From contig NZ_MTSD02000002.1 in the NCBI RefSeq assembly GCF_001995095.2, forward strand, positions 186,001-250,000: 64,000 bases of DNA. The letters are read 5' to 3'. The translations under genes were made by a program, and so were the position numbers. The DNA is from Oceanospirillum linum. GTDB taxonomy: Bacteria; Pseudomonadota; Gammaproteobacteria; Pseudomonadales; Halomonadaceae. The notes beneath the pieces were generated by a model. It made no database searches. It was given only the letters and a program-made list of their open reading frames with translations, and had not been told where the DNA came from. Numbering within the stretch: the first letter of the stretch is position 1; every line of letters starts with the position of its first letter. Of this stretch, positions 46,510 through 51,778 are shown in pieces.

Positions 46510-47367
46510 TTAGACTTTGTAACGAGCCCGCAAAAACGCCCGCCAGTCATCATCCAGCGCCTGCATATTGCGGTGACGGCGGGATTCAAGGTGTCCCTGA
46601 CGGTCTTCCGGTGAGGCAAAAGGCCCGGTTTTGCACCAGTTGCAGTAGTGCTCAGATACCGGTTCTCCCACGGGATGCGTTGGCGGCGTGAGCTGTTCCA
46701 TCAGCTGCTGATCCGGGTGGGAAGCCCCAGGCGTTACACTCCAGTAGTAAGTGGTTCCTTTGGTGCCTCGAATCTGTTTATCACGATCCACGTTACGAAT
46801 CCGGTAACCCTCAAAAGCACTTTGCTGAAACGGGCACATGCCCAGCAGTTCAACCGGCTTGCCCTGATACTCCAGTCCAAGATGGATACCGCACTCCAGA
46901 TCCCACTGACTGTAGGGTTTCAGGTCTTTGGAGCTGATCAACGCCAGCTGTGCGCCATCAGGGTCAAGAAAGAAGCTGAAGGCGTGTTGCAGATAGAGGC
47001 GCAGCAGGCGGCGATTCAGCAGATTGGTGGTCAGGCCACCGGCCTGTTCAAACTCTGCTTTACTGGTAAAGGAAGGAATCAGGGGAAACTGAAAAATCAG
47101 CGCATCAAAGCGGCCTTTCAAACTCTCGGGCCAGGTCGCACTGCTGGTGATATCCAGACCAGTGACCACCTCACTACCCTGCTGTTTCAGCTCAAAAAAA
47201 GCACAATCCTGATATTTGGCGAGCAGCTCCCCCTGCTGATCCAATACACTGGCGGTGACCGAGCCCTGACAGCCAGCCGTCTGTGCCTGCATCTGGTTCA
47301 GTGACAGTGAAAAGGAGAGATCGCCATCCCCTACGGTAAGAATGCGCCAGTTTGGATCGAGATACAT
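46510..47367 (-). CDS. BMT5-like (DUF2431) Rossmann-fold methyltransferase with C-terminal zinc finger
   Basis: A 285-residue protein. ILTVGDGDLSFSLSLNQ near the N-terminus is the SAM-binding motif of the BMT5-like family, whose eukaryotic members methylate uridine in large-subunit rRNA. FDALIFQFPLIP matches the family's second conserved strand. The C-terminus YCNWCKTGPFASPEDRQGHLESRRH has C-x2-C-x13-H-x5-H spacing, like matrin/U1-type zinc fingers. The ATG at 47367 with AAGGGC upstream is preferred to a GTG at 47421. The bacterial substrate is unknown; RNA is the natural guess. Confidence 0.75.
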   Translation of the reverse strand: MYLDPNWRILTVGDGDLSFSLSLNQMQAQTAGCQGSVTASVLDQQGELLAKYQDCAFFELKQQGSEVVTGLDITSSATWPESLKGRFDALIFQFPLIPSFTSKAEFEQAGGLTTNLLNRRLLRLYLQHAFSFFLDPDGAQLALISSKDLKPYSQWDLECGIHLGLEYQGKPVELLGMCPFQQSAFEGYRIRNVDRDKQIRGTKGTTYYWSVTPGASHPDQQLMEQLTPPTHPVGEPVSEHYCNWCKTGPFASPEDRQGHLESRRHRNMQALDDDWRAFLRARYKV

Positions 47368-47468: not shown

Positions 47469-50400
47469 CTAATGCGATGAGGTTATCGTTTTTGTGTTTT
47501 TTCGTGAAACAAGTCTGCGGAACAGTCTGAAAACACGGTTCTCCGCAAAGCCATCACCTAACACCAGCATACAAGGGGTCAGTAACAGGGTCAGAACCGT
47601 GGCAAAGGTCAAACCACCGGCAATGGCGCTGGAGAGCTGGGTCCACCATTGGGTCGATGGAGCCCCCCCAACCCAGACTATGCTCCACCAGATTGACATT
47701 CACACCTAACACCATCGGCATCAGGCCCAGCACCGTCGTCAAAGCGGTAAGTAGCACCGGTCGCAAACGCATACACCCGGTTTCCAGCGCCGCTTCAAAT
47801 GCTCCCAGACCTCCGGCACGAATACGGTTATAGGTATCGATCAATACAATATTGTTATTCACCACAATGCCAGCCAGGGCAATAATGCCCATACCTACCA
47901 TCACAACACCGAAAGCCTGACCGTTAATCAAAAGCCCCAGCAGAACACCTGCCGTTGAGAAAATAATGGCAGATAACACCAGCAGGGTCTGATAGATGCT
48001 GTTGAACTGAATAATCAGAATCAGCATCATCAGCAGGATGGCCACTAAAAAAGCCCCCATCAGAAAGACCATAGATTCTTGCTGATCGGCATCTTCACCG
48101 CCAAAGGTCACGGATACGGTATCCGGCAACTCATCCAAGCGTCCCTTCAGGGCAATCAGGCGCTCGTTCACTTGCTCACCTTCAGCCACATCACCGGAGA
48201 TGGTAATCGTACGTTTGCCATCCAGGCGACGCAAAATACCGGTCTTAGGGGCCGGGGTCAGGGTGACAAAGTTACTCAGAGGAACCTGACCGTAGGGGGT
48301 GTTAAGACTCTGTCGATTCAACTGGTCCAGAGTACGGGCATACTCCGGCAGGCGAATACGGATATCCACCTCATCACTGGCATCCTCAGGTCGGTAACTT
48401 GCCAGTTTCAGGCCGTTACTGACCAGCTGAACCGCATTACCCACACTGGATATCGTTGCACCATATTGAGCGGCTTTAGCCCGATCCACTTCAAAGCGCC
48501 ACTCAATACCCGGTAGCGCCCGATCATCGTTCACATCGGCAAAACCACCCAACTCATCCATCATCTGACGGATCTGAGCCACCGCTGCGTTAATCTCCTC
48601 AGGATCATTGCCACTGATACGCAGCTCAACCGGCTTACCGGATGGGGGGCCACCTTCCTGCTTACGGAACTCCAGAATCACGCCGGGAATATCCTGAGTG
48701 CGCTCACGCATCTCATCCAATATCAGGTTCGCCGGTCGCCGTGCCTCCCAGTCGGTAAAGCGGAACTGAATCACACCGATCACATCTTCCGCCAGTTGGC
48801 CACCCGCCGCTGCAAAGGAGCGGGCATACATCGCCTCCACCTCTGGCATACCATACAAACGGTTTTCAATTCGCTGCAGCAGGGCATCTTTCTCATAAAC
48901 AGAAAAATCCCCCAGAGTACGCACCTGAAGCTGGGCCGATTCAGGCTCAACATCAGGGAAAAATTCCATGCCGTGGTTAAACTTGCCGTAGGCCGCATAG
49001 ATTGCGCCCATCAGTACCAGCATCAGCACCAGGGTGCTCGCGGGAAAGCGCAGGCAAAGATTCAGAATACGGCGATAAACCTTACCGCCACCGGACTGAT
49101 TCTGAGCATGATTCATATCGATATCACTAACCGTAGGACGCTTATCCCTATCCAGCGATTCCCGTCTACCGAAGACCTTGCCCATCACCGGCAAAAAGAT
49201 CAGCGCCATCGCCAATGAAGCAAACAGGCAGATCATGACGGTTGCCGGCAGATATTGCATAAACTCTCCCATCACTCCCGGCCAGAAGAGTAAGGGCAGA
49301 AAGACCATAATGGTGGTCAGGGTCGAAGCGATAATCGGCCATGCCATACGGCTGGCGGCATGGGCCCAGGCATCGTTACGTGAAAAACCTTCTTTTTGAT
49401 GACGGTCTGCCAGTTCTGATACCACAATGGCTCCATCCACCAGCATCCCCGCCACCAGGATTAAAGAGAAAAGAACAATAATGTTCATGGTAAAGCCCAG
49501 GGATGACACCACCAGAATCCCGGTCAGGAAGGCTCCGGGAATCGTCAGTCCCACCAGAAAAGCAGCACGGGCACCCATCGCCGCCAGCATAATAATCAGA
49601 ACCAGAATAACAGCGGTCATCACATTATTGAGCAGATCCGATAGCATGCTCTTCACTTCTGAGGACTGATCCATCAGATAGCGCACCTGCAAATCTTTCG
49701 GTAATTGAGGTTCTGCCGCTTTAAATAGCGCCCGCACTTTATCAACGGTATTGATAATATTGGCTCCGGCGCGCTTCTTAATCTCCAGCACGACCCCAGG
49801 CTGACCATTAATTCGGGCAAACCCTTCCGGATCGGTAAAGGTGCGACGGATCGTCGCCACCTCTTTAAAGGTCACCACCGTCTGGCCGGAAACCTTGATC
49901 GGCATATTCATCACATCTTCAAGATGTTCGATCACCCCGGGAATCTTCAGGGTCATGCGGCCAGCACCGGTATCCAGGCTTCCGGCGGCCACCAGCTGAT
50001 TGTTGTTACTCACCAGGGCGTAAAGATCGGCGTAATCCAGGTTATAGCTGTCCATCGCCTGAGGGTCCACCACGATCTCCAGCAGGTCTTCCCGGTCGCC
50101 TGCGATATCAACCTCAAGGATTTCCGGAATACCCTCCAGCTCCTGCTGCAGACGGCGGGCGATATAAATCAGCTGCTTCTGGTTGACGGGGCCGGATAAC
50201 CCCACAGACATCACCGGAAAGAGCGCCACGTTGATCTCATGCACCGTCGCTTCATCCGCTTCTGCAGGAAGTTTTGATTGAGCACTATCAACCTTTTCCC
50301 GGACGTCCTGCAGTGCCGTTTTTGGGTCAAAGCCAGCATCAAACTCCAAAGTGACGGAAGCATGACCTTCTCCTGCGATGGCGGTCATCTTCTTAATGCC

Positions 50401-50628
50401 TTCCAGTGAACGCAGCTCCTGCTCCATGGGGCGGGCCAAAAGGCGCTCGGAATCCGCCGGACTAATGCCACTCAGGGTCATAGAAATATAGATAATGGGA
50501 ATGGTAACGTCAGGATTGGCTTCCTTTGGAATCGTCTGATAGGACGCAATACCACCAACGACCAACATAATCAGAACAAAAAGCGTGGCCCGGCTTCGAT
50601 TCATCGCCGCCCGAATCAGGGTTTCCAT
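47469..50628 (-). pseudogene. RND-family efflux permease, frameshifted near the C-terminus as read
   Basis: An RND inner-membrane pump with twelve expected helices and two large periplasmic loops (PKEANPDVTIPIIYISMTLSG...; GVNVNLVEHSLG near the end). As read the frame runs 50628 to 47554 and ends in a nonsense tail after HSLGWGG. One base fewer in the C7 run at 47663-47669 restores APSTQWWTQLSSAIAGGLTFATVLTLLLTPCMLVL, with the stop at 47469 and about 1052 residues. Without the restored end the last helix is lost. It starts one base after the adaptor stop codon. No outer-membrane channel gene is adjacent. Confidence 0.85.
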
Positions 50629-50629
50629 A

Positions 50630-51778
50630 TCAGTTTGCTCCGCGCGCAATCACAAGCTCAGAATCATCACGGCTGTAGTCGGTGACGGGGGTATCGGTAC
50701 CGGAAATATTCACCACAGAAACCGTCTGGCCATGGTGAACAAAGCCTCCGCCCAGACTGATAACCGACACTTTATCCGGTAGCCCTGTGATCCAGGCTCC
50801 ATCTGTACCGGTACTCAGGAGACTAACCGGGGCAAACACCACTTTATTCTGTGCATCGACCCACTTAACCCCCAGTTCACCTTTTTCATTCAAACTAAGC
50901 AATGCCGGCGATAGTTTATGGGCAGGTACACTTCCCAGATGAATATTCAATGTCGCACTGGCACCTGCGATCCGAAGCTGATCAGGGTTTTCCAGTGCCA
51001 CTTCAATAGGAAAACCTCGGGTTGAGGGGTCCGCAGCGCTGGCCACAAAACTGACAGAACCCTCCAGCTGACGCCCATCTAATAATGCGACTTCAACCCG
51101 CTGGCCTACAGCCACATGAATCACATCCTGCTGCGGCACCTGAGCGGTGACCTTCAGGCGATCAATATTTACCAGCAACCCCCACTCCTCACCTGGTGTC
51201 ATGTATTGCCCAAGCTCTGCATCCAGCTGATCGACGACACCATCAAAAGGGGCTTTTGGTACAACATGATCCAACTGCTGCTGAGCCAGAACCAGGCCTG
51301 AACGCGCACTTTCCAGTTCACTTTCAAGGCTCAGAACGGCAGTCTCAGTTTGCAGGTTGGTTTTATAGAGCTTACGGGCGCCTTTTAACTCAGCTTCTTT
51401 CAGGCGCACACTGGCCTTAGCGCTATGTAACTGAGCCTGATATTCACTCCCGGACAACCGAATAAGAGGCTCCCCCTGTGAGACCCGGGCACCCTGCTGT
51501 ACCAGTAGCGACTCCACAGTTCCCGACACCTGAGCCCTAAGCTGAACACGACGCCACGGTTCAATCTGCCCCTGAAGGACTGTTTCGCGGTCATAGAGGG
51601 AGGCTTCCGAAAGCTGGACCTCTACCTGGGGCAACGTGACCTCAGGCTTGGAGTTCCCTGAAGCTTCAGGGGCTTCAGCCAGTGCCGTATCTATCCGGGC
51701 TGTCAATGCCCAACCTACAAAGCCCACAACAGCAACTGCTGCGGCAACATGCGAAAGTTTAATATTCACTGGGTGCAA
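50630..51778 (-). CDS. RND efflux periplasmic adaptor (membrane fusion protein)
   Basis: A 382-residue adaptor. One N-terminal helix (VAAAVAVVGFVGWAL) anchors it. The lipoyl-like halves (RAQVSGTVESLLVQQGARVSQGEPLIRL; PKAPFDGVVDQL) flank a helical hairpin, with a beta-barrel and membrane-proximal domain after. The start is uncertain: TTG at 51778 or the GTG three codons later. It is directly upstream of, and coupled to, the RND permease gene. Confidence 0.9.
   Translation of the reverse strand: MHPVNIKLSHVAAAVAVVGFVGWALTARIDTALAEAPEASGNSKPEVTLPQVEVQLSEASLYDRETVLQGQIEPWRRVQLRAQVSGTVESLLVQQGARVSQGEPLIRLSGSEYQAQLHSAKASVRLKEAELKGARKLYKTNLQTETAVLSLESELESARSGLVLAQQQLDHVVPKAPFDGVVDQLDAELGQYMTPGEEWGLLVNIDRLKVTAQVPQQDVIHVAVGQRVEVALLDGRQLEGSVSFVASAADPSTRGFPIEVALENPDQLRIAGASATLNIHLGSVPAHKLSPALLSLNEKGELGVKWVDAQNKVVFAPVSLLSTGTDGAWITGLPDKVSVISLGGGFVHHGQTVSVVNISGTDTPVTDYSRDDSELVIARGAN

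What the first reader, a model, noticed from the sequence alone, without database searches (positions are those of the whole stretch)
46510..47367. Bacterial BMT5-like methyltransferase with a C2H2-type zinc-finger tail
The Rossmann motif VGDGDLSFSLSL is that of the BMT5-like rRNA uridine methyltransferases known from eukaryotes, and the tail carries C-x2-C-x13-H-x5-H. Such a combination in a bacterium may mark an undescribed RNA-modifying enzyme or a transfer from eukaryotes.
Basis: partly seen in the sequence, partly recalled or inferred. Interest (0 to 1): 0.6.

Follow-up and report, generated by a model that had tools for sequence, protein, structure and literature searches.

The report
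Zinc-finger BMT5-like methyltransferase in gammaproteobacteria
A bacterial gene joins a methyltransferase domain named after a yeast ribosomal-RNA-modifying enzyme to a zinc finger resembling kinds that bind RNA in eukaryotes; it belongs to a well-conserved but uncharacterised family in several groups of bacteria and probably methylates an RNA that is still unknown.

Summary
ORF 46510-47367 (- strand, 285 aa) matches Pfam BMT5-like (E 2.1e-23) and ends in C-x2-C-x13-H-x5-H. It is not a one-off. Relatives occur in 5 of 6 genomes of its genus, Oceanospirillum, window included, on 13 Pseudoalteromonas records of the plasmid collection and in seven unnamed gammaproteobacterial genera, one of which may be Pseudoalteromonas. 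The finger pattern is exact in 68 of 69 distinct sequences; the exception loses its tail at a contig end. All four ligands are invariant in a 53-row alignment. The best Pfam finger match among relatives is the RNA-binding JAZ type (11 of 53, best E 1.7e-4); the window protein passes no finger cut-off. No informative neighbour is shared across genera. Most likely it is a SAM-dependent RNA methyltransferase, perhaps making m3U, with the finger gripping the RNA. RsmE-family genes are also present, so it does not replace RsmE. Transfer from eukaryotes could not be tested. The full-length structure model failed (pLDDT 36.9), and the tail model had no PDB match. Database records already label relatives DUF2431 or class I methyltransferase. 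New variant of a known kind, moderate interest.

The parts
46510..47367 (-). whole gene, 285 aa, stop codon included: BMT5-like methyltransferase with C-terminal zinc finger
46795..47340 (-). BMT5-like (PF10354) methyltransferase domain, residues 10-191
   Evidence: E 2.1e-23, same place in the whole genome
47299..47334 (-). SAM-binding motif I VGDGDLSFSLSL, residues 12-23; G13 D14 G15 D16 F19 invariant in 53 sequences
   Evidence: SAM binding is inferred
47080..47106 (-). DALIFQFPL, residues 88-96, the likely motif IV (catalytic loop); D88 and I91-L96 invariant in 53 sequences
   Evidence: the role is inferred from position
46573..46644 (-). zinc finger C242-x2-C245-x13-H259-x5-H265
46510..46572 (-). 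C-terminal stretch after the finger, modelled as helix, with near-invariant M268 and W275 (stop codon included)

Best explanation
The protein is a SAM-dependent RNA base methyltransferase. The N-terminal Rossmann domain binds SAM through GDGD, an invariant acid (D43) and a near-invariant acid (D72), and places the target base at the FQFPL loop. The C-terminal C2H2 zinc finger, which resembles the JAZ/U1 type, and the helix after it hold a structured (double-stranded) RNA so that one uridine is presented; by analogy with yeast Bmt5 the product would be N3-methyluridine. Shown here: family membership of the domain, conservation of motifs and of the four zinc ligands, purifying selection, lack of a partner gene shared across genera. 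Inferred: SAM binding, zinc binding, RNA as substrate, uridine N3 as the atom, rRNA as the RNA. My step estimates: methyltransferase 0.93, zinc site 0.9, RNA substrate 0.75, uridine N3 0.45, rRNA 0.4. The confidence below is for an RNA methyltransferase guided by the finger, without fixing the base.
For: PF10354 hit over the full model (53 of 53 members of A2, best E 4.6e-36). Invariant G13 D14 G15 D16 F19, D43, D88, F92-Q93-F94-P95-L96, N118 R119, S146 K147, P151 Y152 W155 in 53 sequences. Zinc ligands at exact spacing in 68 of 69 distinct sequences from at least eight genera, the other being L070 at a contig end. 11 of 53 members hit zf-C2H2_jaz, described by Pfam as double-stranded-RNA-binding, best E 1.7e-4. 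Yeast Bmt5 makes m3U2634 of 25S rRNA (table row in PMC8307265; passage in PMC7694415). Weak and not significant alone: PDB sequence hits of the tail are ZNF622, a 60S biogenesis factor, E 0.19, and U1-C, E 5, and, with the 53-row profile, a protein labelled mS91/ml91, E 0.26, and a designed protein, E 1.7.
Against: No biochemical data. The AlphaFold model of the whole protein failed (mean pLDDT 36.9, 3 sequences). The tail model (mean pLDDT 79.2) shows a short and a long helix, not a clear beta-beta-alpha finger, and has no Foldseek match in the PDB. No finger family passes Pfam's gathering score in the window protein, whose only finger hit is zf-C2H2_2, E 0.056. Neighbouring genes give no hint of RNA work. 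NCBIfam gives no hit for the window protein; 8 of 53 members have weak hits to a generic 'putative methyltransferase' (PRK14968; best E 1.3e-4), beside scattered chance-like hits, and none names a substrate.
Confidence: 0.55

Rival explanations
1. It methylates an RNA, but not uridine N3 of rRNA: a tRNA, a small RNA or mRNA, and perhaps another base. The Pfam name records one yeast enzyme and does not fix the reaction.
For: Only the domain family is shared. The zinc-finger type is separated from the five other bacterial BMT5-like rows in the tree by a strongly supported long branch (100/99, length 3.78). Two PF04452 genes (that this is the RsmE family is recalled) are present in this genome; RsmE makes the one m3U known in E. 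coli rRNA (passage), so an m3U gap at that site does not need filling.
Against: The best-scoring finger family among members is one that binds double-stranded RNA, which fits rRNA as well; no tRNA-binding domain was among the 23 Pfam families listed for the 53 members at E up to 1.
Confidence: 0.3
2. The zinc-finger methyltransferase acts on a non-RNA target (protein, small molecule) and the finger is a protein-interaction or stability element.
For: No RNA-related neighbour shared across genera. In 10 of 11 annotated Pseudoalteromonas records the gene follows a DUF3429 gene with one small gene between, and in the eleventh with two genes between. Of those 11, the stretch shown also holds ahpC in 7, an AMP-binding protein gene in the other 4, and a Gfo/Idh/MocA oxidoreductase gene in 9 (same calls).
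Against: The DUF3429 and small-gene neighbours did not recur in another genus in the cluster comparison (most loci there had only about 1.5 kb of flank), so they say little about function. The only characterised member of the domain family that I found named is an rRNA methyltransferase.
Confidence: 0.12
3. The gene reached bacteria from a eukaryote together with its finger (a claim about origin, compatible with any of the functions above).
For: The domain was named from yeast, JAZ-type fingers are typical of eukaryotes (recalled), and the distribution in Pseudomonadota is patchy: 5 of 398 genomes over the cut-off in a phylum sample, window included; 1 of 244 in the window's own order, the window itself.
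Against: Within carriers it looks old: 37-49% identity of the window protein to other genera, 22 of 24 and 9 of 9 genomes in two genera, and four of six multi-row genera on one side of a branch (g1 and g114 need two changes). Nothing eukaryotic could be placed on the tree.
Confidence: 0.2

Closest known systems
Yeast Bmt5, 25S rRNA (uridine2634-N3)-methyltransferase (Pfam PF10354 BMT5-like, also known as DUF2431)
   Same: Methyltransferase domain over the full Pfam model
   Different: Bacterial host without 25S rRNA; C-terminal C2H2 finger; GDGD and FQFPL instead of the GEGD and FNFPH that I recall for eukaryotes; yeast sequence not compared here
Zinc-finger-free bacterial BMT5-like proteins (L008, L011, L092-L097)
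   Same: Same Pfam domain; 26% identity over 64% of the query between L028 (= L008) and two Pseudoalteromonas finger-type members
   Different: GEGN[FL] motif in 6 of 8, N-terminal extension, no finger pattern, and an AlkB-like dioxygenase gene next downstream in 8 of 8 loci
RsmE, 16S rRNA m3U1498 methyltransferase (PF04452, name recalled)
   Same: Bacterial enzyme making m3U, the product proposed here
   Different: Different family; both kinds are present in this genome
JAZ/U1-type C2H2 zinc fingers (PF12171, PF12874)
   Same: C-x2-C...H-x5-H with a basic S-K-K-H or S-R-R-H end (the comparison of the end is recalled)
   Different: Sits in a bacterial methyltransferase; weak profile scores (best E 1.7e-4 in a relative, none in the window protein), so it is called JAZ-like, not filed as a member

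Membership tests
BMT5-like (PF10354) | Profile match above the curated cut-off over the whole domain | tested here: met
   83.9 bits against 24.7, model positions 1-167 of 168
BMT5-like (PF10354) | Conserved SAM-binding motif I and acid at the end of strand 2 | tested here: met
   GDGD and D43 invariant in 53 sequences; the assignment to strands is inferred
BMT5-like (PF10354) | Rossmann fold in a structure model | tested here: inconclusive
   mean pLDDT 36.9
rRNA uridine-N3 methyltransferase (Bmt5 function) | Makes m3U in large-subunit rRNA | not testable with these tools
   needs RNA mass spectrometry or an in vitro assay
C2H2 zinc finger, JAZ/U1 type | Two Cys and two His at conserved spacing | tested here: met
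   68 of 69 distinct sequences, the other cut at a contig end; invariant in 53-row A2
C2H2 zinc finger, JAZ/U1 type | Profile match above the curated cut-off | tested here: not met
   Window protein: only zf-C2H2_2 at E 0.056, 14.1 bits against 26.9; 11 of 53 members hit zf-C2H2_jaz with E up to 1, best 1.7e-4 (cut-offs of the relatives not shown)
C2H2 zinc finger, JAZ/U1 type | Matching fold in solved structures | tested here: inconclusive
   Tail model pLDDT 79.2 but no Foldseek match
C2H2 zinc finger, JAZ/U1 type | Binds zinc and RNA | not testable with these tools
   needs protein
Replacement for RsmE | RsmE absent from carrier | tested here: not met
   two PF04452 genes in the window's genome, 195.8 and 121.5 bits; other carriers not tested

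The most novel reading that the evidence does not exclude
A second writer of N3-methyluridine in bacteria, besides RsmE, that uses a eukaryote-style JAZ/U1-like zinc finger to find a site in ribosomal RNA, and has been kept for long times in whole genera of gammaproteobacteria.
Probability: 0.3. Interest if true: 0.65.

Novelty: new variant of a known kind. Interest (0 to 1): 0.43.

Why it matters
The review passage that I read names one m3U site in E. coli rRNA, U1498, made by RsmE (PMC7694415). A BMT5-like enzyme conserved through whole genera of gammaproteobacteria could mean an unmapped RNA modification, and C2H2 fingers of the JAZ/U1 kind are regarded as a eukaryotic hallmark (recalled). 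Oceanospirillum and Pseudoalteromonas include cultured strains (records), so deletion plus nucleoside mass spectrometry would test it directly.

Tried and rejected
Full-length structure prediction from three sequences (window, L006, L007) failed, pLDDT 36.9, and was not used for a fold search. The larger alignments A2 and A4 were not sent to that tool, because its stated rule admits only the window and loci of the search for related loci, the DNA search or the look-up of encoding contigs. The tail model had no PDB match by Foldseek, so VIA-align had nothing to align.

RsmE replacement: rejected for this genome, PF04452 genes present. Phage or viral origin: no tblastn match in 50,697 phage records; in viral contigs 31 stretches matched one of two peptide patterns, none a relative by tblastn. 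Conserved operon partner: none across genera; the cross-genus clusters were the methyltransferase itself, antisense reading frames, or groups shared by two genera only (histidine kinase, ahpF-like reductase, chemotaxis receptor, MerR-like regulator; naming by eye) (most loci had only about 1.5 kb of flank). Solved structures: no relative of the whole protein by sequence or profile. Literature: DUF2431 in 4 papers, BMT5-like in 0, PF10354 in 1, FDXACB1 in 19 (17 listed); two of Bmt5, m3U and 25S rRNA in 34 (20 listed); Bmt5 with bacterial and zinc finger in 5; AlkB with Bmt5 in 4. I saw listings for these, and no title named a bacterial BMT5-like protein. The original Bmt5 paper is not held and is cited through PMC8307265 and PMC7694415, of which I saw passages only. 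PMC7026641 gave a reference-list entry only.

Monophyly of the Oceanospirillum copies: the free tree needs two changes, but the AU test does not reject one clade (p 0.545), so no claim of two acquisitions is made. No promoter-like site was found near the gene (1.0 expected in shuffles); two terminator-like sites, 1.8 expected.

Full report
WHAT IS THERE. The reading frame at 46510-47367 on the minus strand codes for 285 residues. Pfam finds the BMT5-like domain (PF10354) at residues 10-191, E 2.1e-23, 83.9 bits against a cut-off of 24.7. It is the only match in the genome. NCBIfam gives nothing for this protein. dN/dS (NG86) against two congeners is about 0.12 and 0.09 (the second with saturated synonymous sites). 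GC (0.547) and GC3 (0.60) are close to those of the nirB-like gene beside it (0.552, 0.59), so composition gives no sign of recent arrival.

WHOSE GENOME. The two named contigs found with close relatives are from Oceanospirillum sanctuarii (L006) and O. maris (L007), 86% and 77% identical.

DISTRIBUTION. With PF10354: 5 of 58 genomes among relatives, window included, all in the window's genus (5 of its 6 genomes; 0 of the 31 other genomes of the family). In the window's order, 1 of 244, which is the window's genome itself. In a phylum sample, window included, 10 of 398 at E <= 0.001, of which 5 pass the cut-off: the window, two finger-type and two without finger. In a class sample, window included, 5 of 369, of which 4 pass: the window and three long proteins without the pattern of this family. 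In the order of another carrier, 52 of 345, from 7 of 108 genera. Within genus g76 22 of 24 genomes carry it and within g114 9 of 9. The 14 named control genomes have none. tblastn on plasmids finds 13 records, all Pseudoalteromonas and all typed non-mobilizable, 65 kb to 1.3 Mb. Annotators call it 'class I SAM-dependent methyltransferase', 'DUF2431 domain-containing protein' or 'Rossmann-like fold-containing protein'; two of the 13 records have no annotation there. So relatives are listed in databases, but without a function. Genera outside Oceanospirillum and Pseudoalteromonas are unnamed in the genome collection, and Pseudoalteromonas may be one of the unnamed genera.

THE FINGER. I collected the finger-type loci from all these searches: 5 Oceanospirillum, 13 plasmid records and all 52 genomes, 70 loci and 69 distinct sequences. 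C-x2-C-x13-H-x5-H is exact in 68 of the 69 (details). The one failure, L070, loses its tail where its contig ends. In the 53-row alignment A2 all four ligands are invariant. In the tail alone only five of 43 columns are invariant, and four are the ligands. The residues before the last His are S/T/A (53 of 53), K/R (51 of 53) and K/R (51 of 53), as in JAZ/U1-type fingers (recalled). Pfam scans of the 53 gave zf-C2H2_2 in 12 (best 0.0032), zf-C2H2_jaz in 11 (best 1.7e-4) and zf-met in 7 (best 0.097), with E up to 1 counted. PDB sequence searches with the tail gave only insignificant hits (ZNF622, E 0.19; U1-C, E 5; mS91/ml91, E 0.26; a designed protein, E 1.7). A three-sequence AlphaFold model of the tail reached mean pLDDT 79.2, with a short helix followed by one long helix; Foldseek found nothing in the PDB. 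The metal site is therefore supported by conservation, not by structure.

THE ENZYME. Invariant residues in A2 fit a class I methyltransferase: G13 D14 G15 D16 F19 (motif I), D43 (the acid expected at the end of strand 2), near-invariant D72, D88 with I91-F-Q-F-P-L96 (likely motif IV), N118 R119, S146 K147, P151 Y152 W155, Y188, R191 N192 V193. The assignment to motifs is inferred from order and spacing; the full-length model failed.

SURROUNDINGS. In the window the gene lies between a nirB-like gene and an RND-type efflux gene (my reading of the translations). O. sanctuarii and O. maris have an extra gene (DUF6920/DUF6544 by the L006 copy) between pump and methyltransferase that tblastn does not find in the window. 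G001 and G002 of the same genus have other neighbours. In the 11 annotated Pseudoalteromonas records a DUF3429 gene lies upstream, with one small gene between in 10 and two genes between in 1. Across genera the comparison found no shared neighbour apart from broad superfamilies, a MerR-like regulator in two genera and antisense frames (most loci had only about 1.5 kb of flank). It works, as far as one can tell, alone.

TREE. In a 58-row tree of the methyltransferase domain (finger left out) the 53 finger-type rows are split from five other bacterial BMT5-like rows with 100/99 support; those five have long branches, so their own order is unsure. In a 53-row tree the labels of seven groups need 7 changes, 6 being the minimum; g76, g503, g509 and Pseudoalteromonas (94/93) each lie on one side of a branch, g1 and g114 need two changes. 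One Oceanospirillum clade is not rejected (p 0.545). Mostly vertical descent within genera plus rare transfer between them explains this; the presence in one sampled genus of its order makes transfer into an ancestor of Oceanospirillum likely, though repeated loss elsewhere is not excluded.

WORKING HYPOTHESIS. SAM-dependent methylation of a base, most likely uridine N3, in a structured RNA held by the finger. The passages say that yeast Bmt5 makes m3U2634 of 25S rRNA and that the only known m3U site in E. coli is U1498 of 16S rRNA, by RsmE. This genome has two PF04452 genes (RsmE family by recall), so the new enzyme is not its substitute here.

LIMITS. No eukaryotic sequences were available, so origin from eukaryotes is open. 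Most genera are unnamed in the genome collection. Function is untested.

Noticed in passing
L008/L028, L011/L029, L092-L097: A second bacterial BMT5-like type without finger. In 8 of 8 loci, from four unnamed families of another class of Pseudomonadota, the next gene downstream on the same strand is an AlkB-like 2OG-Fe(II) oxygenase (PF13532 in the two scanned, whose gaps are 13 and 33 nt; in the other six by blastp, with open frames that overlap or lie within a few nt). In L092 and L095 the second gene is cut by a contig end. Such a pair may write and erase, or further modify, the same base.
   Followed up: partly
L017/L030, L018, L019: BMT5-like domains inside longer proteins with low-complexity stretches, in small gammaproteobacterial genomes (1.1-1.9 Mb); no other Pfam domain at E up to 0.01.
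   Followed up: partly
window 47469-47699 and 47554-50649: The RND-type pump gene upstream is split between two frames near 47665-47693 compared with O. sanctuarii and O. maris; a real break or a sequencing error.
   Followed up: partly
G000:C220:353875-354360 and G000:C109:799690-800178: Two PF04452 (RsmE family, recalled) genes in the genome, 195.8 and 121.5 bits.
   Followed up: no
L034 and L045: Pseudoalteromonas sp. CuT4-3 has the same methyltransferase protein and neighbours on a 65 kb and a 792 kb record: a duplication or an assembly artefact.
   Followed up: no
L070: BMT5-like frame whose tail changes into unrelated sequence at the contig end; probably an assembly artefact.
   Followed up: partly
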